A stretch of 25,533 bases of DNA from a virus. Of this stretch, positions 4,864 to 25,524 are shown piece by piece. Within the stretch, counting starts at the first letter, position 1. Each line of letters opens with the position of its first letter. Below the pieces are notes generated by a model. The model worked only from the letters and a program-made list of their open reading frames with translations, made no database searches and was not told where the DNA came from. The translations under genes and the position numbers were made by a program. Location of the stretch: positions 1 to 25,533 of the IMG/VR virus record IMGVR_UViG_3300005664_000075; one strand, written 5' to 3'.

Positions 4864-5115
4864 GCCGCAAGCGTTCCGGGCATCGCCCAGTAAACAAATC
4901 GAGGCTATTGCCCGTATGATTCCAGTAATAACTAAAACCCGTTCGGGCATAGATCGGCGCATAGGCGATTTTCCCGCCCCCGGGTATAGTCACCCCTCCC
5001 CCGCTATCCGCGCGCAATGCGCGGCCATTCCACGCGGTTCCCGGGCCTCTCCCCTCCCCGTCACCACCCCCACCCGGCCTAACCCCCCGGGCCTTTGCAC
5101 TTCAGGAACTTAACC
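4864..5115. other. Noncoding stretch before the methyltransferase gene: AT-rich patch, hairpin and C-tracts
   Basis: About 250 bases without a credible gene. It includes a locally AT-rich patch (about 4890-4940, with AGTAATAACTAAAA), unusual in this GC-rich window. It also has a 6-bp hairpin CCGCGC/GCGCGG (5008-5024) and a pyrimidine-rich stretch. From 5051 to 5088 five C-runs (4, 4, 5, 3 and 6 long) are separated by 1, 7, 1 and 7 bases. That fits the canonical G-quadruplex pattern on the - strand and an i-motif on the + strand. TATAGT (4985-4990) resembles a -10 box but has no good -35. An origin or regulatory leader is possible but unproven. Confidence 0.4.
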
Positions 5116-6528
5116 ATGCAGACCATCAAGCTATCCAATATCGTCATCAAGCCAAACCGCCAGCGGCAAGAGTTTGACCCAGTGCATATCTGCGAACTCC
5201 GCGAGTCTATCGAGAAAAACGGCCTCTTGCACCCTCCCGTCCTCCGCCAGGAAATCATCGACGGCACCATGCGTATGGTTCTTGTCGCTGGCGAATCCCG
5301 CCTCAAGGCCATCACGGATATCTTCGACCTCGACGGGGAGTTCCTGCACGATCTCAAGATCTTCCGCGACGGCATGGTGCCTTACAGTGACATCGGCGAA
5401 CTCGATGAGCTGGCTGCGGAAGAAGCCGAACTCGACGAAAACCTCAAGCGTCGTGATCTGACGTGGCAGGAAAATGCCGATGCCCATTCACGCCTGCACA
5501 AACTCCGTGCGCGGCAAAAGGGTGCCGCCCTGGCCAAGGAAATTGCTGACCTCCCGCCGGAAGAACGGCAAGCCGCCGTCGCCAAGTCCAAACCCCACAC
5601 CATCGCTGACACTGCCACCGAACTCTTCGGCCGATCCGACGGCGCCTACCAGGACACCGTCCGCAAGGAAGTCATCGTCGCCCAGCACCTCTCCAACCCT
5701 GCCATCGCCAAGGCCAAGTCCGTTGACGAAGCCTTCAAGATCCTCAAGAAGGAAGAGCAACGCGCTGCGAATATCGAACTCGCGAAGACAGTCGGGGCTA
5801 CCTTCAACGCCGATTGCCACACCCTGCTCAATCAGAGCTGCATCGAGTACATGTGGGACGTGACCAAGCGTCAGTCCCCTGACGAACTCTTCGATGTCAT
5901 CCTCACCGACCCACCTTATGGCATGGACGCCGACAGTTTCGGCGACGGCGCTGGCAAGCTCTCCGGCATCGAGCATCACTACGACGACTCCATGGAATCC
6001 TGGCGCAAGCTCATGACCGAGTGGACCGCCCTGTCCTATCAAGTCTGCAAGCCTCAAGCCCATGCCTATGTCTTCTGCGACTTCGACAACTTCCACGAAC
6101 TCAAAGCAATGATGCAGAAGGCCGGCTGGTATGTATTCCGCACACCTATCATCTGCCACAAGATCAACTCCGGTCGAGTACCGCTCCCTGATCAAGGACC
6201 CCGTCGTCAGTACGAGATCATCCTCTACGCGATCAAGGGAAAGAAGCCTGTCACTCACATCTATCCCGATGTCTTATCAGCTACTGCAGACGATAACATG
6301 TCCCATGGAGCCCAGAAACCGGTTGCCGTTTTCCACAATCTCCTGCAGCGCAGTATTAAACCCGGCGACCGCGTGTTCGACGGATTTGCTGGTTCCGGGA
6401 CCATTTTCGAAGCCGCCCACTCTCATCAATGTTACGCGGTCGGCTGTGAGATCAACCCAGACTATTATGGGATGGGGCTGCGCCGAATCCAAGGTCTGAA
6501 AGCTCTGGAACTCCCTGCTCTGCTATAA
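5116..6528 (+). CDS. ParB-like domain fused to a beta-class N4/N6 DNA methyltransferase
   Basis: I chose ATG 5116 because CAGGAA (5103-5108) is a good ribosome-binding site; a TTG at 5095 is in frame. Residues 1-110 form a ParB/Srx-type domain with the box GESRLKA (59-65). A helical linker spans about 120-240. The C-terminal half is a methyltransferase with catalytic DPPY (D265-Y268) and, later, the AdoMet-binding FAGSGT (424-429). Motif IV before motif I marks the beta class of amino-methyltransferases. The enzyme likely methylates adenine-N6 or cytosine-N4 in phage DNA, perhaps to evade host restriction, with the ParB part aiding DNA recognition. No cognate restriction enzyme is nearby, so it seems to be an orphan enzyme. 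Its stop overlaps the next ATG (TAATG). Confidence 0.85.
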   Translation: MQTIKLSNIVIKPNRQRQEFDPVHICELRESIEKNGLLHPPVLRQEIIDGTMRMVLVAGESRLKAITDIFDLDGEFLHDLKIFRDGMVPYSDIGELDELAAEEAELDENLKRRDLTWQENADAHSRLHKLRARQKGAALAKEIADLPPEERQAAVAKSKPHTIADTATELFGRSDGAYQDTVRKEVIVAQHLSNPAIAKAKSVDEAFKILKKEEQRAANIELAKTVGATFNADCHTLLNQSCIEYMWDVTKRQSPDELFDVILTDPPYGMDADSFGDGAGKLSGIEHHYDDSMESWRKLMTEWTALSYQVCKPQAHAYVFCDFDNFHELKAMMQKAGWYVFRTPIICHKINSGRVPLPDQGPRRQYEIILYAIKGKKPVTHIYPDVLSATADDNMSHGAQKPVAVFHNLLQRSIKPGDRVFDGFAGSGTIFEAAHSHQCYAVGCEINPDYYGMGLRRIQGLKALELPALL

Positions 6529-6686
6529 TGCACAACGAGCACGTTTATCTTTACTTCCGATGGCGGCGATGGGTTGCACTGCAAACCTCCCGCCTGATGG
6601 CAGCTACTTTCTACGCCCAGTGGGCGGAAGACGAAAGATCCAAACAATGCAAGTACGACCAACCGGCCCTGCCCCGGCCAAAATAA
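6528..6686 (+). CDS. Small overlapping ORF, 52 aa, unknown function
   Basis: ATG 6528-6530 overlaps the methyltransferase stop (TAATG) and the frame stays open to TAA 6684-6686, which itself overlaps an in-frame polymerase ATG at 6686. The predicted peptide is Trp/Arg/Tyr-rich (FRWRRWVALQ) with an amphipathic acidic middle and a Pro-rich tail. The double TAATG arrangement is the coupling style used elsewhere in this operon, which favours a real gene. However, it is short, has no good Shine-Dalgarno of its own and overlaps the polymerase N-terminus. It may be a coupling ORF rather than a functional protein. Confidence 0.45.
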   Translation: MHNEHVYLYFRWRRWVALQTSRLMAATFYAQWAEDERSKQCKYDQPALPRPK

Positions 6687-9016
6687 TGATCGTCGGCGAA
6701 GCCCCCGGTGAACGTGAAGTCCACGAAGGTATCCCCTTCGTCGGCTACGCCGGCCAGGAACTCTCCAAGATGCTCGCGGAAGCTGGGATCAATCGCAACG
6801 AGTGCTTCCTGACAAACGTCTGCCGCGTCCGCCCGCCGGGTAATGACATCGGCGCTTTCGTAGCCATGCGGAAGTCCGATATCACCCCGCAGCATGGCCT
6901 TATCCGGGACAAGTACGTCATGCCCCCAGTTTGGGACGGCCTCGAAGCTCTCACGCGAGAGATCGAAATGGTCAGGCCAAACGTCATCATCGCCTTCGGC
7001 AATCTTGCCACCTGGGCCTTGACAGGAAATTGGGGCATCATGTCCTGGCGAGGTTCCGTTCTCGAATGCGACCTCAAGCTTTCCCTGGACTACAAACCCA
7101 AGGTCGTCCCCGCCTACCATCCATCTGCCGTCATGCGGCAATGGTCCTGGCGGCAGATCGTTGTGCATGACCTGCGCAGGGCGAAGACACAAGCCAGTTT
7201 CCCTGGCATTCTCCGGCCGGATTATCAATTCATAACGCGGCCGAGTTTCGAGCAGGCACAGTACTACCTGACCCAGCTCATCACCCAGGTCGAAACCTCC
7301 AAGACCAAACTCTCTGTCGACATCGAAACCCGGGCAGGCCACATTGCCTGCATTGGCATCGCTTGGACCCACCTCAACGCCATTTGCATCCCACTGATGT
7401 GCGTCGAGCGGCAGGACGGTTACTGGTCCGAGGACGAAGAACTCGCCATCTACCAGCTCACCCAACGTCTCCTAACCCACCCCAATGCCGAAGTCGTCGG
7501 CCAGAATTTCCTTTATGATGCTCAGTATTTCTACCGTCATTTGCACTACATCCCACGCTTGGTTCGGGACACAATGCTTGCCCAGCACACCTGCTTCTCA
7601 AACATGCAAAAGGGCCTTGACTTCCTCTCTTCCATGTACTGCGATCACCACGAGTTCTGGAAAGACGAAGGAAAGGAATGGGATGAAAAAACCGGAGAAG
7701 ACCAGCTCTGGGTGTACAACTGTAAAGACGCTGTCATCACCTACGAGGTCGATACAGTCGAACAGCGCAACGTAGACTTGATGGGGCTGCGCGAGGTTCA
7801 CGACTTCCAGCAGAAGCTCTTCTGGCCGGTGCTTCGCACCATGAACAGAGGCATCCGTGTCGACCACGCCAAGCGCGCGGAATTCGCCATGACCCTGTTC
7901 AACGAAATCGCCCAGCGGGAAACATGGCTCAATGACGCCCTAGGCTTCCCTGTCAACATCAAGTCCCCCAAGCAAATGAAGGAGTTGTTCTATGAGCAGT
8001 TTGCCCAACGACCGATCACTTCCCGTAAAACAGGAACTATCACCTGCGACGATGAGGCCCTTGGTAAGATTGCTGATCGTGAGCCTTTGCTCAAACCTGT
8101 TGTCAGGAAGATCCAGGAACTCCGGTCTCTTGGCGTGTTCCTCAGCACATTCATCAACGCTCCTCTCGATATTGATGGAAGAATGCGCTGCAGTTTCAAC
8201 ATCGCTGGGACGGAAACATACCGTTTCAGCTCTTCAACCAATGCGTTCGGAACTGGGCTCAATCTGCAGAATATACCTAAGGGTGGGGGAAACGACGAAC
8301 TCGAACTTCCTAACGTTCGTAGTCTCTTTATCCCCGATTCCGGATGTACCTTTTTCGACATTGACCTTAGTTCAGCTGACCTACGAATCGTTGTTTGGGA
8401 GGCTGATGAACCGGAAATGAAGGCCATGCTCCGGGAGGGGCTGGACCCGTACACCGAAGTTGCGAAGGAATTCTATCATGACCCAAGTCTCTCGAAAAAG
8501 GACCCACGCCGGCAATTGTTCAAGGCATTCTGCCACGGAACCAATTACCTTGGTACAGCTAAGGGGCTTGCCGAGCGGCTTGGCCTGTCTGTATCTGAAG
8601 CCGAAAAGACGCAAAAGTGGTATTTCAGCAAGTTTCCTCGAATCAAGCGCTGGCAGGACGATCTCAAGGATCAGGTCACTAAGCGCCGCATGGTGGAAAA
8701 CGTCTTCGGCTATCGCTGCTACTTCTTCGACCGCATCGAAGGGACGATCTTCAACCAAGCAGCGGCGTGGATCCCGCAATCGACCGTTGCCTGCCTCATC
8801 AACCGAGCCTATGTTGAAATCGACAGGACAATGCCGGAAGTGGAAATCCTCTTGCAGGTCCACGATTCCCTGGCGGGTCAGTTCCCGACCAATGGCGGTG
8901 AGCAGACGGCGGCCCGGATCGTGCAAGCGGCTGAAATCGCTTTGCCTTATTCCGATCCGCTGATCATCCCGATCGGCATTAAGACCTCAACCCGCAGCTG
9001 GGGAGATTGCGACTAA
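6647..9016 (+). CDS. Fusion of a UDG-like domain and family A DNA polymerase with 3'-5' exonuclease
   Basis: The 789-residue protein has three parts. Residues 1-185 are uracil-DNA-glycosylase-like: GEAPG at 17-21, IPFVG at 29-33 and HPS from H158. The usual family 4 Fe-S cysteines before RPP and further on are not present. Residues about 215-370 are a DnaQ-type proofreading exonuclease: D225-I-E227, D291 in GQNFLYD, and Y357-x3-D361. Residues about 400-789 are the polymerase: motif A D573 (DLSSADLR), motif B R622-x3-K626-x3-H630-x3-Y634, and motif C H739-D740. This is the likely replicative polymerase. The start is uncertain: in-frame ATGs lie at 6560, 6647 and 6686. I prefer 6647 because VRPTGPAPAKIMIVGEAPG looks like the natural beginning of the domain. 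The stop overlaps the next start (TAATG). Whether the UDG-like domain excises uracil is unknown. Confidence 0.9.
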   Translation: MQVRPTGPAPAKIMIVGEAPGEREVHEGIPFVGYAGQELSKMLAEAGINRNECFLTNVCRVRPPGNDIGAFVAMRKSDITPQHGLIRDKYVMPPVWDGLEALTREIEMVRPNVIIAFGNLATWALTGNWGIMSWRGSVLECDLKLSLDYKPKVVPAYHPSAVMRQWSWRQIVVHDLRRAKTQASFPGILRPDYQFITRPSFEQAQYYLTQLITQVETSKTKLSVDIETRAGHIACIGIAWTHLNAICIPLMCVERQDGYWSEDEELAIYQLTQRLLTHPNAEVVGQNFLYDAQYFYRHLHYIPRLVRDTMLAQHTCFSNMQKGLDFLSSMYCDHHEFWKDEGKEWDEKTGEDQLWVYNCKDAVITYEVDTVEQRNVDLMGLREVHDFQQKLFWPVLRTMNRGIRVDHAKRAEFAMTLFNEIAQRETWLNDALGFPVNIKSPKQMKELFYEQFAQRPITSRKTGTITCDDEALGKIADREPLLKPVVRKIQELRSLGVFLSTFINAPLDIDGRMRCSFNIAGTETYRFSSSTNAFGTGLNLQNIPKGGGNDELELPNVRSLFIPDSGCTFFDIDLSSADLRIVVWEADEPEMKAMLREGLDPYTEVAKEFYHDPSLSKKDPRRQLFKAFCHGTNYLGTAKGLAERLGLSVSEAEKTQKWYFSKFPRIKRWQDDLKDQVTKRRMVENVFGYRCYFFDRIEGTIFNQAAAWIPQSTVACLINRAYVEIDRTMPEVEILLQVHDSLAGQFPTNGGEQTAARIVQAAEIALPYSDPLIIPIGIKTSTRSWGDCD

Positions 9017-15309: not shown

Positions 15310-16295
15310 GGGCGGCCTCCAATGTCAGAATAATTCACCATCAAATACCCGCTGGGGTGTGCCTGGACGGAATCTGGATAGACAGAGGCAACTTCGTCTG
15401 CCATGTACCCTCGTTCAGATTTCCCACCTATCGTATATTCATATACAGACAGTCCACTAGAGGACGTACCGACACGGCGAATATTTGATTTCAAGCGGCG
15501 ATCGCTGAAAGCATACATAGCAGCGGCAGCCAGTGAAGCTGCTGTGCCCATATTAGCAGAGGTTTGTGCGTTAGCGGCATTGGTACCGCCGAGATCGGCT
15601 TGATATTTCTGCATGAGGGCGCTGGCTAGATCTGGCGTTGTGCCTGTGTTCAAAGATGTGGGTTGAGTGCCATTAGCAGCGGCCAGCAGACTAGCGATGC
15701 GGCTAACAGTATTGGTCTGAGCGGACTCTGCACCGATGGTGGCGTTATTGGCGGCTGTCGCGTAGGCACCTTGCTGAGTTTGGCGCAGGTTACGCAGTTC
15801 TCGGTCATAGGCCTCGGACCCAGGAGCCAGACCTTGATTCTGCAGCTGCGTTTCAAGGGCCTTTGCCTGATCCCCAAAGTTCTGATCTAGGTACTGAATC
15901 TGCTTACCGTAGATAGCATCAGCTACAGCCTTTGACCCCCCGGAAAGACCGGAAAGCTGATCCGTTACAGCCTGCCCCGCTCCCAGCTGCCCCTGCACTT
16001 CAGTGTCATACAACTTCTGTTGCTCAGGTGACAGTGTCGTTTTCCGCATGTAATCCCCTAACTGAGGATTATTCGGGTCCGCCCCCGGACGTAAAGTCCA
16101 TTCCACAGACCCAAAAGGGCCGCTTTCGTTAAAGCGACTGACGTTAGTGGTCTGCATAGCCGCTTTTGTCAGGTCGGGGGACTCTGGGGAATCTTGCTTT
16201 CCAAACATACCGCCAAGACTTTTAGCTGCCACTGGTATTGCCACGGGCCCTGGTATGGAGGAAGTTTTAACCAAAGAGGTAAGAGAGTCACCCAT
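15306..16295 (-). CDS. Internal/tail protein with short S74-like C-terminal domain, 329 aa
   Basis: I chose the ATG at 16295, which follows AAAGG at a good distance, over a GTG three codons upstream. Residues 1-60 are linker-like, and 90-215 are helical and Gln/Ala-rich (a probable internal virion protein body). Residues about 264-329 resemble a minimal Peptidase_S74 chaperone: S264-D-RRLKSNIRRVG, then GLSVYEY, RGYMADEVASVYPDSV and VNYSDIG. In full-length S74 domains the Ser before Asp is the self-cleavage residue and the domain trimerises the preceding fibre. Here only about 65 residues remain against roughly 100-150 usually, so cleavage is uncertain. It overlaps the gene upstream by 8 bases and the one downstream by ATGA. 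Confidence 0.7.
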   Translation of the reverse strand: MGDSLTSLVKTSSIPGPVAIPVAAKSLGGMFGKQDSPESPDLTKAAMQTTNVSRFNESGPFGSVEWTLRPGADPNNPQLGDYMRKTTLSPEQQKLYDTEVQGQLGAGQAVTDQLSGLSGGSKAVADAIYGKQIQYLDQNFGDQAKALETQLQNQGLAPGSEAYDRELRNLRQTQQGAYATAANNATIGAESAQTNTVSRIASLLAAANGTQPTSLNTGTTPDLASALMQKYQADLGGTNAANAQTSANMGTAASLAAAAMYAFSDRRLKSNIRRVGTSSSGLSVYEYTIGGKSERGYMADEVASVYPDSVQAHPSGYLMVNYSDIGGRP

Positions 16296-16728
16296 TTTCA
16301 GCACCTTTATGCGGTTGCAGCCATTTGCAGTGTTCCTTGCGCATGACGAATACGATCAAATCACCTTGTGGGTGCGCGTCTTTCAGCACAGCTTCCTGCT
16401 TAAACCCAAGGCGTTTGTTGAACTCTACAGCGGCTTCGTTGGAGGAAGCAACCATCCCGGTGATACGCTTGACTTTCAGCTGCTCGAAGGGGTAGTGAAA
16501 GATGAAACGCAAAAAGTCCCGGGTTGGCCAGGACTTTCCGGGGACCGAGGCTATGTGAGCCCCGATATTCGCGCCGTTGTAGCCTTCGTAGATAACACCT
16601 GCCATGATACCGGTGTCTACGGAAAAGAGACCAACTGTAGTGCTGGTCGCCGGGGACCATACAGTCCCAACTCGACTGGCAACCCAGGGCCCAACGGCAC
16701 TGTCATGACCAGTGAGGATGTGTCTCAC
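16288..16728 (-). CDS. GNAT-family N-acetyltransferase
   Basis: I chose the GTG at 16728, which forms a GTGA overlap with the preceding stop and has CGGAGG upstream; an in-frame ATG at 16770 lies deeper inside the neighbour. The 146-residue protein has the GNAT pattern: a beta strand GVIYEGY, a region for acetyl-CoA (GKSWPTRDFLRFIFHYPFEQ) without a strict Q/RxxGxG/A, then VKRITGMVASSNEAAVEFNKRLGF (N97, LGF 107-109) and QEAVL. This is the typical RimJ/RimL-like end. It transfers acetyl from acetyl-CoA to an amine; the substrate is unknown. Its place among virion genes suggests modification of a virion protein or of a host factor, but this is inference. Confidence 0.85.
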   Translation of the reverse strand: MRHILTGHDSAVGPWVASRVGTVWSPATSTTVGLFSVDTGIMAGVIYEGYNGANIGAHIASVPGKSWPTRDFLRFIFHYPFEQLKVKRITGMVASSNEAAVEFNKRLGFKQEAVLKDAHPQGDLIVFVMRKEHCKWLQPHKGAENG

Positions 16729-18290
16729 AGTACGCCTCCGAGCTGAAAGACGAAGTCTGTTGATGACCATGCAATGGTAGCATCACTGGAGGATGCCTGC
16801 AAGCCTAGTGCTGCTGCGAAGAAAGGGTTACAGGGAACTGTGGCCCAATTACGAGAAGTTTCTCTGTCCGACGCCCATTCGGCGGAGTCCCAGAGTGCGT
16901 CAGTAGCATCCCACTCGTAGCCGGCAGAGCTTGCAGAAGCGGGGGCAGATAGAAAGGAAGAAAGTGCGAAATCCGGGTCCAGGCTCAAACTCAAGTTTAC
17001 GCTGCCAGAAGTGGAGATCGTGGGGCGTATCAGGGAAGAGTGCTTCTGCTGCCCCCTGGAACGGAAATAGTTATAAGCTTGCCGAGCATTGCCTTGAATA
17101 GCCTCGCCGAAGTCACTGGTACCTGTCCAAGCTTTTGCGACATTGGTAAGGGAGGCGAAATAGAGCTGCTTGTCGAATACAAGCCAATCGTTCGCGTAGA
17201 TTCCTTGAAACTTACACCAAGCTCCGGTGATGGAGTTCATGACATACTGCTCGGAGTAGTCAGTTGAGATGGGAACGTTGACGAGAACGAAACTGCCTTG
17301 TGGAAACACGCAGACACCCCAGCCGGAGTTGCCGCCGTAAAGGCTTGCGGATTCCGTGAAGGCAGTGTCGATCTTCGCTGTGAGGGACTGTGCGCGGTCA
17401 ATAGTGGCCGATTGCAGGGCCTTTGACATTGGGAACAGGCCGTTCTGGGAGAGGATCAAGAGATCACCGCCGTACTGGGCGAAGCAGTTCAGCCCAAGAG
17501 GCTCCCCTATGTAGTACAACCCGACTTTGGCGAAGGTCGAAGAGCTGGCTGGATCCGTGCCTTTGTACACGGCAACCTGCCCTTTAGAGGACATGAAGAC
17601 AGTGTAGTCGTCCGCACCGTCGCCGCCGTCGATCGTCCATGACGCCATGGCGGTCAGATGCCCGCCAAGTGTGAATACTTCACCAAGCGGGAATTCCGTG
17701 AGAGCACCACCGATGGAAGCCGCCGGCAGGTACCAAGCAGACGTAGAATTCTTCTGCACGAACCACAGCCTGCGCTTCAAGACAGCCACGTATGAGAGGG
17801 AGGTCGTAGCCAGCCCGGTGATGGCAGGTGTAGTCGTGCCGTCGATAGAGGCCCAGGAAGTGCCATCGTAGAGCTTTAACTTGTCCGTGCCGTTAACTGC
17901 TACGAGATACGTGCCGCCCGCTACGGAAATGTTTGTGTGAATGAAGAATCCATTTGTGCAGGTGTCTACGGAAGCCCCAACCGCTCCACTGGAAGTTACT
18001 GAATAGATGTCGGTGCTGGTAGCGGCAAACAGCTTTTCCGTGGACGGGCCGTTCCAGTCCAGGAGTGTCAGTGGTTCCGAAGCAAACCCGGTGGCCCAAT
18101 CAGCACAGCCCTTTCGCAGAACCACATCCGAGGCCATTGGGTACCAGTTTTCCAGGATAACCGCATCGGTTTCCTTCATATTGGCCAAAGGATCTCGGGC
18201 ATTCCACCCGCCCACCGGGGGCGGCAGGGAATAAGTAGAGGCCTTCTTGAGGCCTCTTGATGCACGTTTGATGGCTGGTTGGCGGATCAT
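16725..18290 (-). CDS. Tail nozzle / DNA stabilisation-type protein, 521 aa
   Basis: I chose ATG 18290, which overlaps the preceding stop (ATGA) and follows GGAA; a TTG at 18302 is an alternative. The 521-residue protein is rich in beta strands, Gly, Ser, Thr and Trp. It starts with a basic N-terminus and PPPVGGWNARDPLANM, then AVILENWYP, which resembles the opening of podovirus tail nozzle or P22 gp10-type stabilisation proteins. Repeating strands such as KLKLYDGTSW, RLWFVQKNSTSAWYL and QVAVYKGTDP suggest a beta-propeller-like body. It likely plugs or extends the short tail below the adaptor. The call rests on pattern, size and position after the adaptor gene. Confidence 0.7.
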   Translation of the reverse strand: MIRQPAIKRASRGLKKASTYSLPPPVGGWNARDPLANMKETDAVILENWYPMASDVVLRKGCADWATGFASEPLTLLDWNGPSTEKLFAATSTDIYSVTSSGAVGASVDTCTNGFFIHTNISVAGGTYLVAVNGTDKLKLYDGTSWASIDGTTTPAITGLATTSLSYVAVLKRRLWFVQKNSTSAWYLPAASIGGALTEFPLGEVFTLGGHLTAMASWTIDGGDGADDYTVFMSSKGQVAVYKGTDPASSSTFAKVGLYYIGEPLGLNCFAQYGGDLLILSQNGLFPMSKALQSATIDRAQSLTAKIDTAFTESASLYGGNSGWGVCVFPQGSFVLVNVPISTDYSEQYVMNSITGAWCKFQGIYANDWLVFDKQLYFASLTNVAKAWTGTSDFGEAIQGNARQAYNYFRSRGQQKHSSLIRPTISTSGSVNLSLSLDPDFALSSFLSAPASASSAGYEWDATDALWDSAEWASDRETSRNWATVPCNPFFAAALGLQASSSDATIAWSSTDFVFQLGGVL

Positions 18291-19006
18291 GATACGTTCC
18301 AATTTCCAGATGGGACGAAGATTCCAGGCTGAAAGTCCGTAGCCCCGCCGTCCATCATAAGTGTCGGTTTGGTGGCATCACGGGAAGCGAGATCGGCCCC
18401 CATAGCCTCGTAACGATTGAACTCTTCTGCGTAGTCGAGCCCCTTTTCAGCCTTCCACTTCCAACGCAGTCCAGCAAGGAGCAGCTTATCATCCAGCAAG
18501 AAAACGTCAGTATCAGCCTGAAACGAACTTTGCAGGGAACCGTCTTCTGCCATAATGCACAGAGTCGTAAAGGCCTCGAAGACACAATTATGACCCGCAG
18601 CTGCCGGGGGACTGAACAACAAGCGATCACCGCGTATGCGGTATTTGTAGAAAGGCCCTGTCGTCGGGAGTGCCTTAATTGCCTGCCATTTTGAGCCTGT
18701 CATCGGCCCGAAGATCGGCAACCGCAGAGTGCGATTGAAGATAGTCTGCTGAGAGATTTTATTGAAAGCGGCCCGACTGAGCCCCATGACGCTGAAGATA
18801 TCCCCTTGGTCTTCGCCAGAGGATGTGGTAAAGAGAACTTCCTTTGCCAATGTCTGCCACTCCCACCGCATTGTGATGTCTTCACAGACTTCATTCAACA
18901 TGGCGATGATTTGCAGAACTTGCGTGTCCGGACTGGAAATCGCGTAGGAAGGACGCGTAAGACCAGTTCGATCACAGAAAGTTTGGGCAAAGGCTAGGAG
19001 GTTCAT
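18287..19006 (-). CDS. Tail adaptor / head-tail connector protein, 239 aa
   Basis: The 239-residue protein has an N-terminal helical part (AFAQTFCDRTGL, LQIIAMLNEVCEDITMRWEWQTL) and a beta-rich centre (FYKYRIRGDRLLFSPPAAAGHNCVFEAF). The C-terminal helix (GLDYAEEFNRYEAMGADL) completes the arrangement of P22 gp4/T7 gp11-type adaptors, which form a 12-fold ring between portal and nozzle. No Shine-Dalgarno is visible; the start lies only 6 bases after the previous stop, so reinitiation is likely. It overlaps the nozzle gene by ATGA, in the expected order. Confidence 0.75.
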   Translation of the reverse strand: MNLLAFAQTFCDRTGLTRPSYAISSPDTQVLQIIAMLNEVCEDITMRWEWQTLAKEVLFTTSSGEDQGDIFSVMGLSRAAFNKISQQTIFNRTLRLPIFGPMTGSKWQAIKALPTTGPFYKYRIRGDRLLFSPPAAAGHNCVFEAFTTLCIMAEDGSLQSSFQADTDVFLLDDKLLLAGLRWKWKAEKGLDYAEEFNRYEAMGADLASRDATKPTLMMDGGATDFQPGIFVPSGNWNVS

Positions 19007-20327: not shown

Positions 20328-21311
20328 TTAGGCCTTCATGACGCCTTGCAGGTGACGGTTCGAGCACTCCATGTTGCCCATCCAGAGGATAGGCACCACG
20401 GCGGCGTCCTGGTTGTAGGGCTTCAGCTCGTCCATGATCTCCAGGTCGGCATCCGAGTGGACAACCAGATCCAGGTAGTTCGTGTTGAGGAAGTAGCCGT
20501 GGTTGGAGGGGATGCCGGAACCGCCGTCGAAGATCACGTCAGCGTTCTTGTACTTCAGCTCGACGAAACCGCCGTTGGCCTTGGCACCCTTGGAGCCGTC
20601 AGGCGTGTAGCGCTTGATCGAGGTCTGGGACTGCTCGAAGAACGTGAAGTAGGTGTTGTCCATCACGATCAGGTCAGGCTTGTCATCACCACGAACCAGA
20701 GACAGCCACAGGGGCAGCATCAGGGATTCGATGGTCGAGGCCGATGGGGTGATGGCACCACCGCCCTGCAGAGGGGCTGCAGCGGACTGCACCTGCGACT
20801 TCCAGAACGTCCAGGTCGAGGAGTCGATACCACCAACGGTACCTGTACCGGCATCGGACACCAGAGCCTGCAGGCCGTTGATCTGGTTGGGCAGGGTGCC
20901 GTCGCTGTACACGTCGACAGAGAAGTTGTTCTTGAACGTGCGGATCGCATTCTTCATGCGAGCCTTGACCAGGTTGACAATGCGGGAACCGCCGCTGTTG
21001 ACGCGGAGTTCCATACCGCTGGCGACCACGTTGACCGCGATCTGGCGCCATTGGTACTCAGCCGAGCTGATCACGTCGCTGGCGCCGATGTTCAGCACAT
21101 CGTAGCCAGAGTAACGCTGGTAGGTGTTGTTCGCTGCGTAGTCCAGAGGCGTGACGATGGTCAGACCGCCGTCTTCCTTGCGATAACCGCCATTGTCGTA
21201 GATGCGACGCAGCAGGGCATTGTTGTTGCTGATGTTGTCCTTGATTTCCTTCGAGTGCTTGCGGAAGGTCGTGGACACCAGTTCGGTGAAAACTGCATTG
21301 GGAGAAGCCAT
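20328..21311 (-). CDS. Major capsid protein
   Basis: The 327-residue protein begins with an N-terminal helical arm (FTELVSTTFRKHSKEIKDN). DGGLTIVTPLDYAANNTYQRYSGYDVLNI follows, a pattern strongly typical of a podovirus/siphovirus capsid family. The middle has KARMKNAIRTFKNNFSVDVYSDG, and the C-terminus has KPDLIVMDNTYFTFFEQSQTSIKRY and GYFLNTNYLDLVVHSDA, also typical for capsid subunits of HK97-like fold. Its place after scaffold and before decoration supports the call. The leader matches that of the tail fibre gene. I see no protease gene; cleavage of the coat is not evident. Confidence 0.9.
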   Translation of the reverse strand: MASPNAVFTELVSTTFRKHSKEIKDNISNNNALLRRIYDNGGYRKEDGGLTIVTPLDYAANNTYQRYSGYDVLNIGASDVISSAEYQWRQIAVNVVASGMELRVNSGGSRIVNLVKARMKNAIRTFKNNFSVDVYSDGTLPNQINGLQALVSDAGTGTVGGIDSSTWTFWKSQVQSAAAPLQGGGAITPSASTIESLMLPLWLSLVRGDDKPDLIVMDNTYFTFFEQSQTSIKRYTPDGSKGAKANGGFVELKYKNADVIFDGGSGIPSNHGYFLNTNYLDLVVHSDADLEIMDELKPYNQDAAVVPILWMGNMECSNRHLQGVMKA

Positions 21312-22378: not shown

Positions 22379-22798
22379 TTAAGCGCTTTGGCGCTCGAAA
22401 GATACGTCGAGTCCTTGTTCCATTTCCGCAGCGAGTTGCTCTCGCTTCCGGGCAGGCAGGGACTCAACGAGCTGCTCTGCGGTTTGTTCGATTTGTGCCT
22501 CGAAGGCAGCGTCTTGTTGTGCGCGGAAGGAAGCGGCTTGCCGAGTTTCCCCGGGTTCGAGGACACGGCAGCCGTGCTTCTTGAGGTTCTCTTCGTGGGC
22601 GCGTCGGCCTTCAATCCAGGCGCCCGAGACCGGGCACTCATAGCCTTGATAGTCCCCGCGCACGACAGGAGCTTCAAGAACCCGATTCATATGCGTGCCG
22701 TCAAGTGAGCAGGCTTCGACTTCATCCAGCTCGGCAATCTTTTTGAAGACAGGCTGCTTTGTCTGGCACTTCGGGCATTGATAGGTGTAGAGCGGCAT
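22379..22798 (-). CDS. FmdB-type zinc ribbon protein, 139 aa
   Basis: It starts MPLYTYQCPKCQ with C8-x2-C11, the opening of FmdB-type zinc ribbons. The second knuckle is altered: instead of CxxC there is C30 with H36 in CSLDGTHM. Later GYECPVSGAW has one more Cys. The C-terminal half is helical and charged. The start overlaps the portal stop (TGATG at 22800-22796) and has AAGGACA upstream. Such small zinc ribbon genes are often found between portal and scaffold in podoviruses, but their role is unknown. It may be a head assembly factor or regulator. Confidence 0.75.
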   Translation of the reverse strand: MPLYTYQCPKCQTKQPVFKKIAELDEVEACSLDGTHMNRVLEAPVVRGDYQGYECPVSGAWIEGRRAHEENLKKHGCRVLEPGETRQAASFRAQQDAAFEAQIEQTAEQLVESLPARKREQLAAEMEQGLDVSFERQSA

Positions 22799-24915
22799 CA
22801 GGTCTGTCCTTGTGTCTTGGGTGGGCGGGGATTCGCTGAGGCTACCTTAGCCCGGGCCGTTACCAACGTGGCTTCAGTCTTCGCAGCAAGTTCCTTCATT
22901 TTCAAGGTGTGGGCAAGGATATCAAACTCTCGTTGCCTTTGCAATGCTTCCATTTCAAGTTGATGAACTTGCTGCTTGAGGGCCATGTCCATTTGAGCGA
23001 GTTGGACTTCTTGCTCGCGGGCCTTGGCATCCCCAGCCATTTCCATCTGCAGGCGTTGCATTTCCATCTGCGCCTTTTGGGCATTCGGGTCAGGCTTCGG
23101 CTGCGGTTGCTGCATGGCGTTGATCTGCTCTTCTACCTCGTTGCCGAATTTGAAGCGACGGACAATCACCATCATCATGGACTTGGCAGCGTCGAATGGC
23201 ATGGTGCCGGATTCAATCAGCGGGCCGATGCCGTTGAGGAACTGTGCCAGGGCGTTGAGGAGTTCGCCGATGTCCTTCTTGTCTTCGGTAGCTTCAGCGT
23301 CGATAGTCGAATTGGTTTCAATGTCGATGCGATAGCTGCGCTGGAGATCGTTTTTCAGCAGGGCCAGGATATCAGACCAAGACGGGCCGGAGAGGACTTT
23401 TGCCAGTTCCGGTGGCACAGGTTGCCCGGCTTGCTGCAATTGCATAGCCTGCATCTGGATCTGCTGCTTTTGATCACCAGTGGGAATCGGCAGCCCCGTC
23501 ATACCCTGGAGTGTCTGCGGATGCAGCTTGCTCATGGCGATTTCCGTCATGATCCGCAGGGAATCACGGGCGTAGCGGGCAACCTCCTTTTGGGCGCGTT
23601 TCAACCGCAGGGTGCCCCATTGGTTTTTCAGCTCCTGCGCACCGAGCGTTTCGCTGGCTTGAGAACTCCCACGCATGATGTCGGCGATGCCAGTGATCTC
23701 GTAGATCGTCTGTTTGACTTGATTGCGCTGGAGGTAGAGCTGCTGCAGGACAGGGATGATGTCCTTGATCGGAAACAGCCAGACGGACTTGTCCAGCCCA
23801 CCGCCACCGCCAGAACCGTACAGGGCGGCGACATTTTGAGCCGGGATGAGGGTATTGTCGTCAGCTTCCAGGACCTTGTCGATACCATCGACACTGCCGT
23901 CATACATACCGCGGACCTTCAGTGCCGCGATGAGTTTATTGATGCGAACGGTGACTTTGTTCAGTTCCTTGGCCTGCTCCTCGTACATAGCGTAGAGGGG
24001 GACTGGGGTCAGGGAAGTGATCTTTTGAACAAAGGTCAGGGGCTTCGGGCAGGGGAAGAAGCCGGACAGGCCGAGAGGGTCATCGACAGGGGGCTTGAGG
24101 AAGTCGTCCTGGAAGTTCGGGGAGGCGAAGTAGACCTTTTTCGTGGCCTTGTCCCAGATCTCATAGACAGGGGCGACTTTGACGTTGGCCATACCGGCCT
24201 TGTCGCGGTTACTGTTGCCTTCATCGCCGGAGGAATTTTCCTGCAGGGAGGCGAACTCAACCCGAGCTGCGATAGCTGCGCCGAAGTTCTTTTCGACCTC
24301 TTCCTTGTCCATGAAGTGCTCGCGGGACACCCAGGGGACGTCCTTCCACTTCTTCGCATAGCCGTGTAGGAAGCGATCCCAGGGGACCTCCTCGCCACAG
24401 ACCTGCTCGCCTTCGACGCTCTCATAGCCGGGGGGTTCAGCGGACTCGGTATCGACGCCAGTAGCAGCCGTTTCCGCATTTTCCGCTGCCTGTTCCCTGA
24501 CCGTTTCGAAGCTGGCATCGTACTTGAACCAAGTCACGCCACGCCCGGGAACGAGGGCTTCCAGGACGGCGGATTTCATCAGCTCATCGAAGGTGGCATA
24601 GGTAGCCATGCCGTCATCGAGCAGGTACTCCAACGTGCGCTGCGTTGCCTTGGAAGCCAGACCTCCGAGGGGGTCGGGATCCTTGAAGCGCCGCTGCACT
24701 ACAGGACGGGGCGTGCTGTTGTACAGAGCCGGGGCGAGCGTTTCCGTGTTCGAGTACAGGATGTTGAACTGATACTCGGCCTTCTTCTCTGCCTCGAACA
24801 ATGCAGTGATGCGAGAGCCTTCCTTACGGAAATCCTTCTCCCGCTTCTGCGCTTGCTGGATCTCATCCAACCACGTCTTGACAGAAGGGCTCACAACGGT
24901 GTCTTGATTGTCCAT
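22798..24915 (-). CDS. Portal protein (large podovirus type), 705 aa
   Basis: The 705-residue length is close to that of the P22-like portal. The N-terminus is charged helix (WLDEIQQAQKREKDFRKEGSRI). EYQFNILYSNTETLAPALYNSTPRPVVQRRF follows, a strong portal pattern. The clip/wing part contains GRGVTWFKYDA, VPWDRFLHGYAKKWKDVPWVSREHFMDKEEV and the stem-type segment QIYEITGIADIMRGSSQASETLGAQE. Residues about 612-690 form a long coiled coil rich in Gln, Met and Lys, like the barrel of large portals. It forms the 12-fold DNA gate of the head. AAGG precedes the start. Confidence 0.9.
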   Translation of the reverse strand: MDNQDTVVSPSVKTWLDEIQQAQKREKDFRKEGSRITALFEAEKKAEYQFNILYSNTETLAPALYNSTPRPVVQRRFKDPDPLGGLASKATQRTLEYLLDDGMATYATFDELMKSAVLEALVPGRGVTWFKYDASFETVREQAAENAETAATGVDTESAEPPGYESVEGEQVCGEEVPWDRFLHGYAKKWKDVPWVSREHFMDKEEVEKNFGAAIAARVEFASLQENSSGDEGNSNRDKAGMANVKVAPVYEIWDKATKKVYFASPNFQDDFLKPPVDDPLGLSGFFPCPKPLTFVQKITSLTPVPLYAMYEEQAKELNKVTVRINKLIAALKVRGMYDGSVDGIDKVLEADDNTLIPAQNVAALYGSGGGGGLDKSVWLFPIKDIIPVLQQLYLQRNQVKQTIYEITGIADIMRGSSQASETLGAQELKNQWGTLRLKRAQKEVARYARDSLRIMTEIAMSKLHPQTLQGMTGLPIPTGDQKQQIQMQAMQLQQAGQPVPPELAKVLSGPSWSDILALLKNDLQRSYRIDIETNSTIDAEATEDKKDIGELLNALAQFLNGIGPLIESGTMPFDAAKSMMMVIVRRFKFGNEVEEQINAMQQPQPKPDPNAQKAQMEMQRLQMEMAGDAKAREQEVQLAQMDMALKQQVHQLEMEALQRQREFDILAHTLKMKELAAKTEATLVTARAKVASANPRPPKTQGQT

Positions 24916-24923
24916 GATAGGCC

Positions 24924-25349
24924 TTACGGGCAGATTGTTTTCATGTAGTCATTGGACAGGGAGAAGTCTTGCTGCAACTTCCACTTGTCATGCCACCAAA
25001 CGGCGTAGACCTGTGGGTCACAGATGCCGCCAGCTTTATACTTCCTGAGCGCGGAGTTGGCATCCTGCAATTTAAGTCCTCTGCCCCACACCCAGGAAGC
25101 TGCGTTAGCGACCTCTTCCGTACAGTGGTCTGTGCGGCAAGCAACTATATTGATACGCTTGCCGCACATCCAGGCAGCCCATGTACCGAGAGGGTTCTGG
25201 CGAAAAGATATCGCAAAGGGGTCAGAGGGACTGCAATCGAGCTGCTGGGCGTGGGCAGTGCCCAGCACCAGGGCCGCAGCAGTGGCTGCGATGATCGCTG
25301 CGCGCGCCAAGGCGGGCCGCCATCCGAACGGCGCGTCATTCGTGCGCAT
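24924..25349 (-). CDS. Exported cysteine-rich protein of unknown function, 141 aa
   Basis: I place the start at the ATG 25349, where GGTGG lies just upstream; an in-frame ATG at 25358 is also possible, and farther starts overlap the neighbour gene. The N-terminus has the Sec signal pattern: basic region, hydrophobic core (residues about 13-30) and AHA-QQ cleavage after A34. The mature part has six Cys (39, 62, 71, 76, 110, 140), consistent with three disulfides, and many Trp. No family recognised. It is encoded between a small head-cluster gene and portal, 8 bases before the portal start. A periplasmic role, for example superinfection exclusion, is conceivable but not shown. Confidence 0.7.
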   Translation of the reverse strand: MRTNDAPFGWRPALARAAIIAATAAALVLGTAHAQQLDCSPSDPFAISFRQNPLGTWAAWMCGKRINIVACRTDHCTEEVANAASWVWGRGLKLQDANSALRKYKAGGICDPQVYAVWWHDKWKLQQDFSLSNDYMKTICP

Positions 25350-25524
25350 GGCCACCATCCGCGCAGCACGCAGCCCACACAACAGGCTGGCCATCGTGGC
25401 TGACGATGTCAACCCAGCCCACTCGCTCGTATTCATCGGCTTGATCATCGCTGAGCGCAACTTGACCTGTACGGTGCCACACTTCACCCACCAGGATGGG
25501 CTTGATGATTTCAACGGTTTTCAT
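25336..25524 (-). CDS. Small hypothetical protein of the head gene cluster, 62 aa
   Basis: The protein begins MKTVEIIKPILVGEVWHRTG followed by VALSDDQADEYERVGWVDIV, a pattern frequent in small phage structural-cluster proteins: a strand, a Gly turn, and a helix with Asp/Ala. It ends in a Cys/His tail (CCADGGHAHE). AGG is seen upstream of the ATG at 25524. It overlaps the exported-protein gene by 14 bases. No function is known; small proteins of this look are often found between terminase and portal. Confidence 0.65.
   Translation of the reverse strand: MKTVEIIKPILVGEVWHRTGQVALSDDQADEYERVGWVDIVSHDGQPVVWAACCADGGHAHE

What the first reader, a model, noticed from the sequence alone, without database searches (positions are those of the whole stretch)
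24924..25349. Exported six-cysteine protein encoded next to portal
A clear Sec signal (AHA-QQ) followed by a small Trp-rich domain with six cysteines is odd in a head-assembly operon, where products remain cytoplasmic. It would reach the periplasm and fold with disulfides. It may protect the infected cell (superinfection exclusion), inhibit a periplasmic enzyme or aid lysis.
Basis: partly seen in the sequence, partly recalled or inferred. Interest (0 to 1): 0.6.

Follow-up and report, generated by a model that had tools for sequence, protein, structure and literature searches.

The report
Exported six-cysteine protein in phage adsorption cassette
A bacterial virus carries a small gene for a secreted, probably disulfide-stapled protein of an unknown family, placed next to the enzyme with which the virus probably attacks host surface sugars, so it probably alters or blocks virus attachment to an infected or lysed cell, though this is not shown.

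Summary
On the minus strand, 24924-25349 encodes 141 aa with a Sec signal (AHA|QQ) and a 107-aa mature part with six cysteines and seven tryptophans. Two IMG/VR homologues exist, in a sister phage (L004) and in a phage with an unrelated portal (L003). Both keep the signal, all six Cys and six Trp. Codon changes against L004 are 47 silent to 11 replacing. No Pfam, PHROG, NCBIfam, PADLOC or PDB-sequence match was found; structure models are too weak to use.

A contig overlapping the window end by 122 identical bases gives the order: terminase, 575-aa NodB-like virion-type protein, 62-aa ORF, six-Cys gene, portal. In about 76 relatives the terminase-portal gap is usually empty. Small exported Cys-rich proteins appear there only behind a glycan esterase-like gene. 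L003 also has the gene directly behind a GDSL hydrolase.

Best reading: an exported accessory of an exchangeable adsorption cassette, most likely blocking receptor or adsorption, as T5 Llp or T4 Spackle do, but unrelated to them by any test run. Export and disulfides are inferred from sequence; function is inferred from position only. Interesting, but an orphan of unproven function.

The parts
24924..25349 (-). CDS of the exported six-Cys protein, 141 aa, stop included
   Evidence: purifying selection; homologues
25248..25349 (-). Sec signal peptide, residues 1-34 (a TTG start at residue 14 would give a 21-residue version), predicted cleavage AHA|QQ
   Evidence: read by eye, heuristic; SignalP not available
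24927..25247 (-). mature domain, 107 aa, Cys at precursor positions 39, 62, 71, 76, 110, 140; low-confidence model beta-beta-beta-alpha-alpha-beta-alpha-alpha
   Evidence: mean pLDDT 53 and 59
25336..25524 (-). 62-aa ORF upstream, overlapping the six-Cys start by 14 nt; no family match
   Evidence: the same first residues on contig L041
25527..25533 (-). last bases of the upstream 575-aa virion-type gene (NodB-like motifs), which lies almost wholly on contig L041
   Evidence: 122-nt exact overlap with L041; ORF 2461-4188 of L041; motifs
22798..24915 (-). portal protein, directly downstream
   Evidence: phrog_12082, E 4.5e-169
20328..21311 (-). major capsid protein, further downstream, same strand
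   Evidence: phrog_9953, E 4.5e-81

Best explanation
A Sec-exported, non-lipidated, disulfide-stapled small protein of a new family, carried as the last gene of an exchangeable adsorption cassette (virion glycan deacetylase/esterase plus exported accessory) inserted between terminase and portal. Most likely mechanism: made late with the virion genes, it crosses the inner membrane, folds with three disulfides in the periplasm, and acts on the host envelope so that the same phage no longer adsorbs to the infected cell or its debris, i.e. a superinfection-exclusion or progeny-protection factor matched to the neighbouring receptor-recognition enzyme. Shown here by sequence: a conserved coding gene, a signal-like N-terminus, invariant Cys, and its position behind esterase-type genes. 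Inferred: export, disulfides, late expression, action on adsorption.
For: Signal, six Cys and six Trp kept at 56% identity under purifying selection. Immediate neighbours upstream are hydrolases with virion-type N-termini: L004 has two SGNH-like genes (GDS...DGVHP in one, degenerate GMS...LND in the other), L003 a GDSL hydrolase (phrog_6102, E 1e-22; Pfam Lipase_GDSL_2 below cut-off), and the window's own phage (via L041, 122-nt exact overlap) a protein with FDAS and HTWSH NodB-type motifs. The L041 and L004 appendages share their first ~35 residues and then differ, as swappable appendages do; L056 and L004 show the same for another N-terminus. Of about 76 terminase-portal intervals, a small exported Cys-rich gene is present in 4 of 5 with a glycan-esterase gene and 0 of 71 others (2 of 3 versus 0 of 12 after collapsing sisters and keeping only intervals with cargo, Fisher p 0.03). 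The L050/L055 protein in that slot is a different or very distant sequence. Literature: SE proteins are small, exported, sit with receptor-binding genes, and also stop adsorption to lysed cell fragments (PMC9586334; PMC8594841); virion SGNH deacetylases govern adsorption (PMC8471582).
Against: Only three family members, two of them sisters. The slot statistics rest on 2-3 independent lineages and were tabulated by hand. Known SE proteins are mostly expressed early; this gene lies among late genes. Receptors for esterase-bearing phages are often polysaccharides, which have no periplasmic face to block. No homology to any known SE protein was found. The NodB reading of the 575-aa protein rests on motifs: Pfam gives no NodB match, and comparison with the L113 deacetylase gave nothing significant.
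Confidence: 0.36

Rival explanations
1. Cognate partner of the virion esterase: an exported inhibitor or 'immunity' protein that binds the phage's own glycan deacetylase/esterase (as T4 Spackle binds the gp5 lysozyme) to protect the infected cell's surface or keep progeny from being trapped.
For: Repeated adjacency to esterase-type genes in two unrelated phage lineages; Spackle precedent for an exported, disulfide-containing inhibitor of a virion enzyme (PMC7677548).
Against: The three neighbouring enzymes are not alike (NodB-like, degenerate SGNH, GDSL; L003 versus L004 E 0.41), so one conserved inhibitor would have to fit different folds. The esterase acts outside the cell, the protein is expected in the periplasm.
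Confidence: 0.15
2. Host-directed moron: a secreted protein that changes the infected or lysogenised host's envelope or protects it from outside enzymes (lysozyme-inhibitor style), carried in a permissive cargo site and with no tie to adsorption.
For: The terminase-portal gap carries varied cargo (PhoD-like in L034, beta-rich exported protein in L062). The mature protein has a CX4C loop with an internal His, as recalled for the lysozyme inhibitor Ivy.
Against: Ivy (PF08816) gives no match; a PDB profile search finds no inhibitor of that kind; no promoter or operon of its own was identified; always behind a hydrolase gene.
Confidence: 0.2
3. Lysis accessory: a periplasmic regulator or helper of lysis (antiholin or spanin-like role).
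For: Exported and late by position; related SGNH genes sit beside lysis cassettes in other phages (Shewanella QDWS, Rhizobium RHph_N2); T4 RI is a periplasmic antiholin with a cleavable signal (PMC8385771 abstract).
Against: No lipobox, no transmembrane anchor and no coiled coil as in spanins; no holin or endolysin next to it; a small TM protein sits at the far end of the late genes in the window, L004 and L003 phages.
Confidence: 0.13
4. Ordinary orphan gene with another exported role, or no selected export role, carried by chance next to the portal.
For: Only three members known; L050/L055 resemblance is not significant (SW z 2.5-3.1; profile search finds nothing).
Against: Strong purifying selection and invariant Cys, and presence in two phage lineages.
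Confidence: 0.16

Closest known systems
T5 Llp / T1 and phi80 Cor / Rtp45 receptor-blocking lipoproteins
   Same: Small phage-encoded exported proteins; Llp has a disulfide; such genes accompany the receptor-recognition locus and stop adsorption to infected cells and lysed fragments (PMC9586334, PMC8594841, PMC12685063)
   Different: They are lipoproteins with a Cys at +1, mostly early, and target protein receptors. Here no lipobox, six Cys, late-operon position, glycan-esterase neighbours, no sequence match
T4 Spackle (gp61.3)
   Same: Signal peptide, soluble periplasmic mature protein of about 75 residues, disulfide, acts in superinfection exclusion by inhibiting a virion enzyme (PMC7677548)
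   Different: All-helical with one disulfide and an early gene; the present model (weak) is mixed beta/alpha, with six Cys; no sequence match in the PDB search
Virion SGNH/GDSL and NodB polysaccharide deacetylases (e.g. Aristophanes gp41, G7C-type tailspikes)
   Same: The neighbouring genes look like these: N-terminal anchor plus hydrolase domain (PMC8471582)
   Different: They lie between terminase and portal rather than at the end of the tail genes; they are the neighbours, not the protein itself

Membership tests
Llp/Cor-type SE lipoproteins | Type II signal with lipobox and Cys at +1 | tested here: not met
   Residues after the predicted cleavage are QQLDC in all three members
Llp/Cor-type SE lipoproteins | Encoded with the receptor-binding gene | tested here: inconclusive
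   Adjacent to virion-type esterase genes, whose role in adsorption is inferred
Llp/Cor-type SE lipoproteins | Blocks receptor binding | not testable with these tools
   Needs an experiment; host unknown
T4 Spackle | Sequence or fold similarity to Spackle | tested here: inconclusive
   No PDB sequence match at E<=10 other than UVR8 noise; model too weak for fold comparison
Ivy lysozyme inhibitors (PF08816) | Match to the Pfam model | tested here: not met
   No match in the window, while the control genome E. coli matches
Exported disulfide proteins (general) | Signal peptide plus conserved even number of Cys | tested here: met
   disulfide formation itself not tested
Spanins | Lipobox or TM anchor with coiled coil | tested here: not met
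   No Cys at +1, no TM segment after the signal

The most novel reading that the evidence does not exclude
A phage cassette that pairs a virion surface-glycan deacetylase/esterase with its own secreted, disulfide-stapled antagonist or receptor-masking protein, exchanged as a unit between unrelated phages: a superinfection-exclusion device for sugar receptors, where none of the known receptor-blocking lipoproteins could work.
Probability: 0.15. Interest if true: 0.65.

Novelty: new variant of a known kind. Interest (0 to 1): 0.42.

Why it matters
Exported small phage proteins are hard to find because they share no sequence; PMC9586334 remarks that many unknown small phage proteins may serve superinfection exclusion. 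A positional rule (exported Cys-rich gene behind a virion glycan esterase in the terminase-portal gap) would make them findable, and would give a candidate for exclusion in phages that use sugars rather than proteins as receptors.

Tried and rejected
Family searches with the protein and its homologues: Pfam (best Peptidase_C23, E 0.12, noise), PHROGs (E 0.097, noise), NCBIfam, PADLOC: nothing. tblastn in phages and plasmids: nothing significant. Genome scan with the three-member profile: no relative. PDB by sequence and profile: UVR8 beta-propeller hits at E>=1.3, rejected as Trp-rich noise. AlphaFold models from 3 and 5 sequences: pLDDT 53 and 59; Foldseek best E 1.2 (PDB) and 0.23 (BFVD); VIA best Z 3.9; no fold is claimed. 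Distant homology with the L050/L055 exported protein: shuffling z 2.5-3.1, hhalign prob 4%, not in the profile search at E<=10; kept as possible only. An extra member by DNA pattern: only the two known contigs. Host by prophage search with the portal: none. Ivy-like loop: rejected.

Full report
Observation. The ORF is at the stated coordinates on the minus strand. The product is MRTNDAPFGWRPALARAAIIAATAAALVLGTAHA|QQLDC...ICP: a Sec-type signal, then 107 residues with six Cys and seven Trp. The nearby late proteins carry few Cys (capsid 1 of 327, portal 2 of 705, scaffold-like 0 of 345), except the Zn-ribbon protein. SignalP was not available, so the signal is read from its n/h/c pattern, which all homologues repeat.

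Conservation. Scans of IMG/VR gave two homologues. L004 (39.8-kb contig, portal 89% identical) has a 125-aa copy, 90% identical in the mature part. L003 (33-kb contig, an unrelated phage with a Head-tail_con portal, PF12236) has a 129-aa copy, 56% identical in the mature part. All six Cys and six Trp are invariant. Window versus L004: 47 silent and 11 replacing codons of 107. In L004 and L003 the start is ATGA-coupled to the upstream gene exactly at the signal, so translation without a signal is unlikely.

Neighbourhood. The window is a 25.5-kb virus record. Contig L041 (IMGVR 3300005664_004616) overlaps its right end by 122 identical bases and shows what lies upstream: a TerS-like ORF, TerL, a 575-aa gene, then the 62-aa ORF, the six-Cys gene and the portal. 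The 575-aa protein begins with the same ~35 residues as the 434-aa SGNH-like protein of L004 (E 9e-17) and then carries FDAS and HTWSH, motifs of NodB deacetylases. Pfam does not confirm this, so NodB is an inference. L004 has TerL, the 434-aa GDS...DGVHP protein, a 535-aa protein with degenerate SGNH motifs, six-Cys, portal. L003 has portal, a 491-aa GDSL hydrolase (phrog_6102, E 1e-22), six-Cys, 70 aa, scaffold-like protein and capsid.

Slot survey. A TerL scan gave 80 loci. In most, TerL abuts the portal; where it does not, the gap holds virion-type cargo: GDSL hydrolases (L056, Pfam E 2e-12; L050/L055, phrog_8480 E 5e-36), a polysaccharide deacetylase (L113, PF01522 over the cut-off), a PhoD-like protein (L034) and beta-rich proteins. 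L050 and L055 carry, between their GDSL gene and the portal, another exported small protein (130 aa, ALA|Q, 4 Cys). A small exported Cys-rich gene is thus in 4 of 5 intervals with a glycan esterase-type gene and 0 of 71 others; after collapsing sister pairs and keeping only intervals with cargo it is 2 of 3 versus 0 of 12 (tabulated by hand). L003, with different virion genes, is a third case of such adjacency, outside this count.

Are the two exported families related? A colinear alignment shares G-x-W, HCT..[IV].N and K....DP, but shuffling gives z 2.5-3.1 and profile search finds nothing. If they are related, C39 and C62 are missing together in L050/L055, which would suggest that they pair. 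This is a conjecture.

Fold. AlphaFold models from three and five sequences reach pLDDT 53 and 59, too low for fold claims; the searches gave nothing.

Mechanism. The position suggests an accessory of the adsorption cassette. Receptor-blocking proteins are known to be encoded with receptor-binding proteins (PMC8594841) and to stop adsorption to infected cells and lysed fragments (T5 Llp, PMC9586334). T4 Spackle is an exported disulfide protein that inhibits a virion enzyme (PMC7677548). Virion SGNH deacetylases control adsorption, and pretreating cells with one blocked its phage (PMC8471582). I therefore put an adsorption-blocking role first (0.36), with the moron (0.2), esterase-partner (0.15) and lysis (0.13) rivals behind. 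Nothing here tests function. The gene is not a member of the Llp/Cor lipoproteins (no lipobox) nor of Ivy.

Novelty. A new family of three with no database match; as a kind of thing it is close to known exported exclusion proteins, hence a new variant of a known kind. Interest is moderate: the positional rule is testable but rests on few lineages.

Noticed in passing
L050:3157-3549 and L055:10795-11187: A second exported small Cys protein (130 aa, 4 Cys) between a GDSL hydrolase and the portal, possibly a very distant relative.
   Followed up: partly
L062:3024-3995: 323-aa beta-rich protein with a signal-like N-terminus in the terminase-portal gap: an exported or decoration-type protein in a head operon.
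   Followed up: no
L024:2590-2865: 91-aa exported eight-Cys protein upstream of sugar-modifying genes (epimerase- and methyltransferase-like by eye) and terminase.
   Followed up: no
L041:2461-2580, L113:9484-, L034:2592-, L055:9517-: Gap proteins with different bodies share a short N-terminus around GYPxGxSL (statistically shown only for L041 versus L004), which looks like a common virion anchor peptide.
   Followed up: partly
window 6560-9016: 818-aa ORF that by eye fuses a uracil-DNA-glycosylase-like N-terminus to a family A DNA polymerase.
   Followed up: no
window 5095-6528: 477-aa ORF that by eye fuses a ParB-like N-terminus to a DNA methyltransferase (DPPYG motif).
   Followed up: no
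window 16728-18302: Matches phrog_5107, annotated amidase, at E 4.8e-116, but no Pfam match; the corresponding gene in MW202489 is named phage stabilization protein, so the amidase label is doubtful.
   Followed up: no
window 16291-16770: Acetyltransferase-like gene (phrog_4470, E 1.6e-38) within the tail gene cluster.
   Followed up: no
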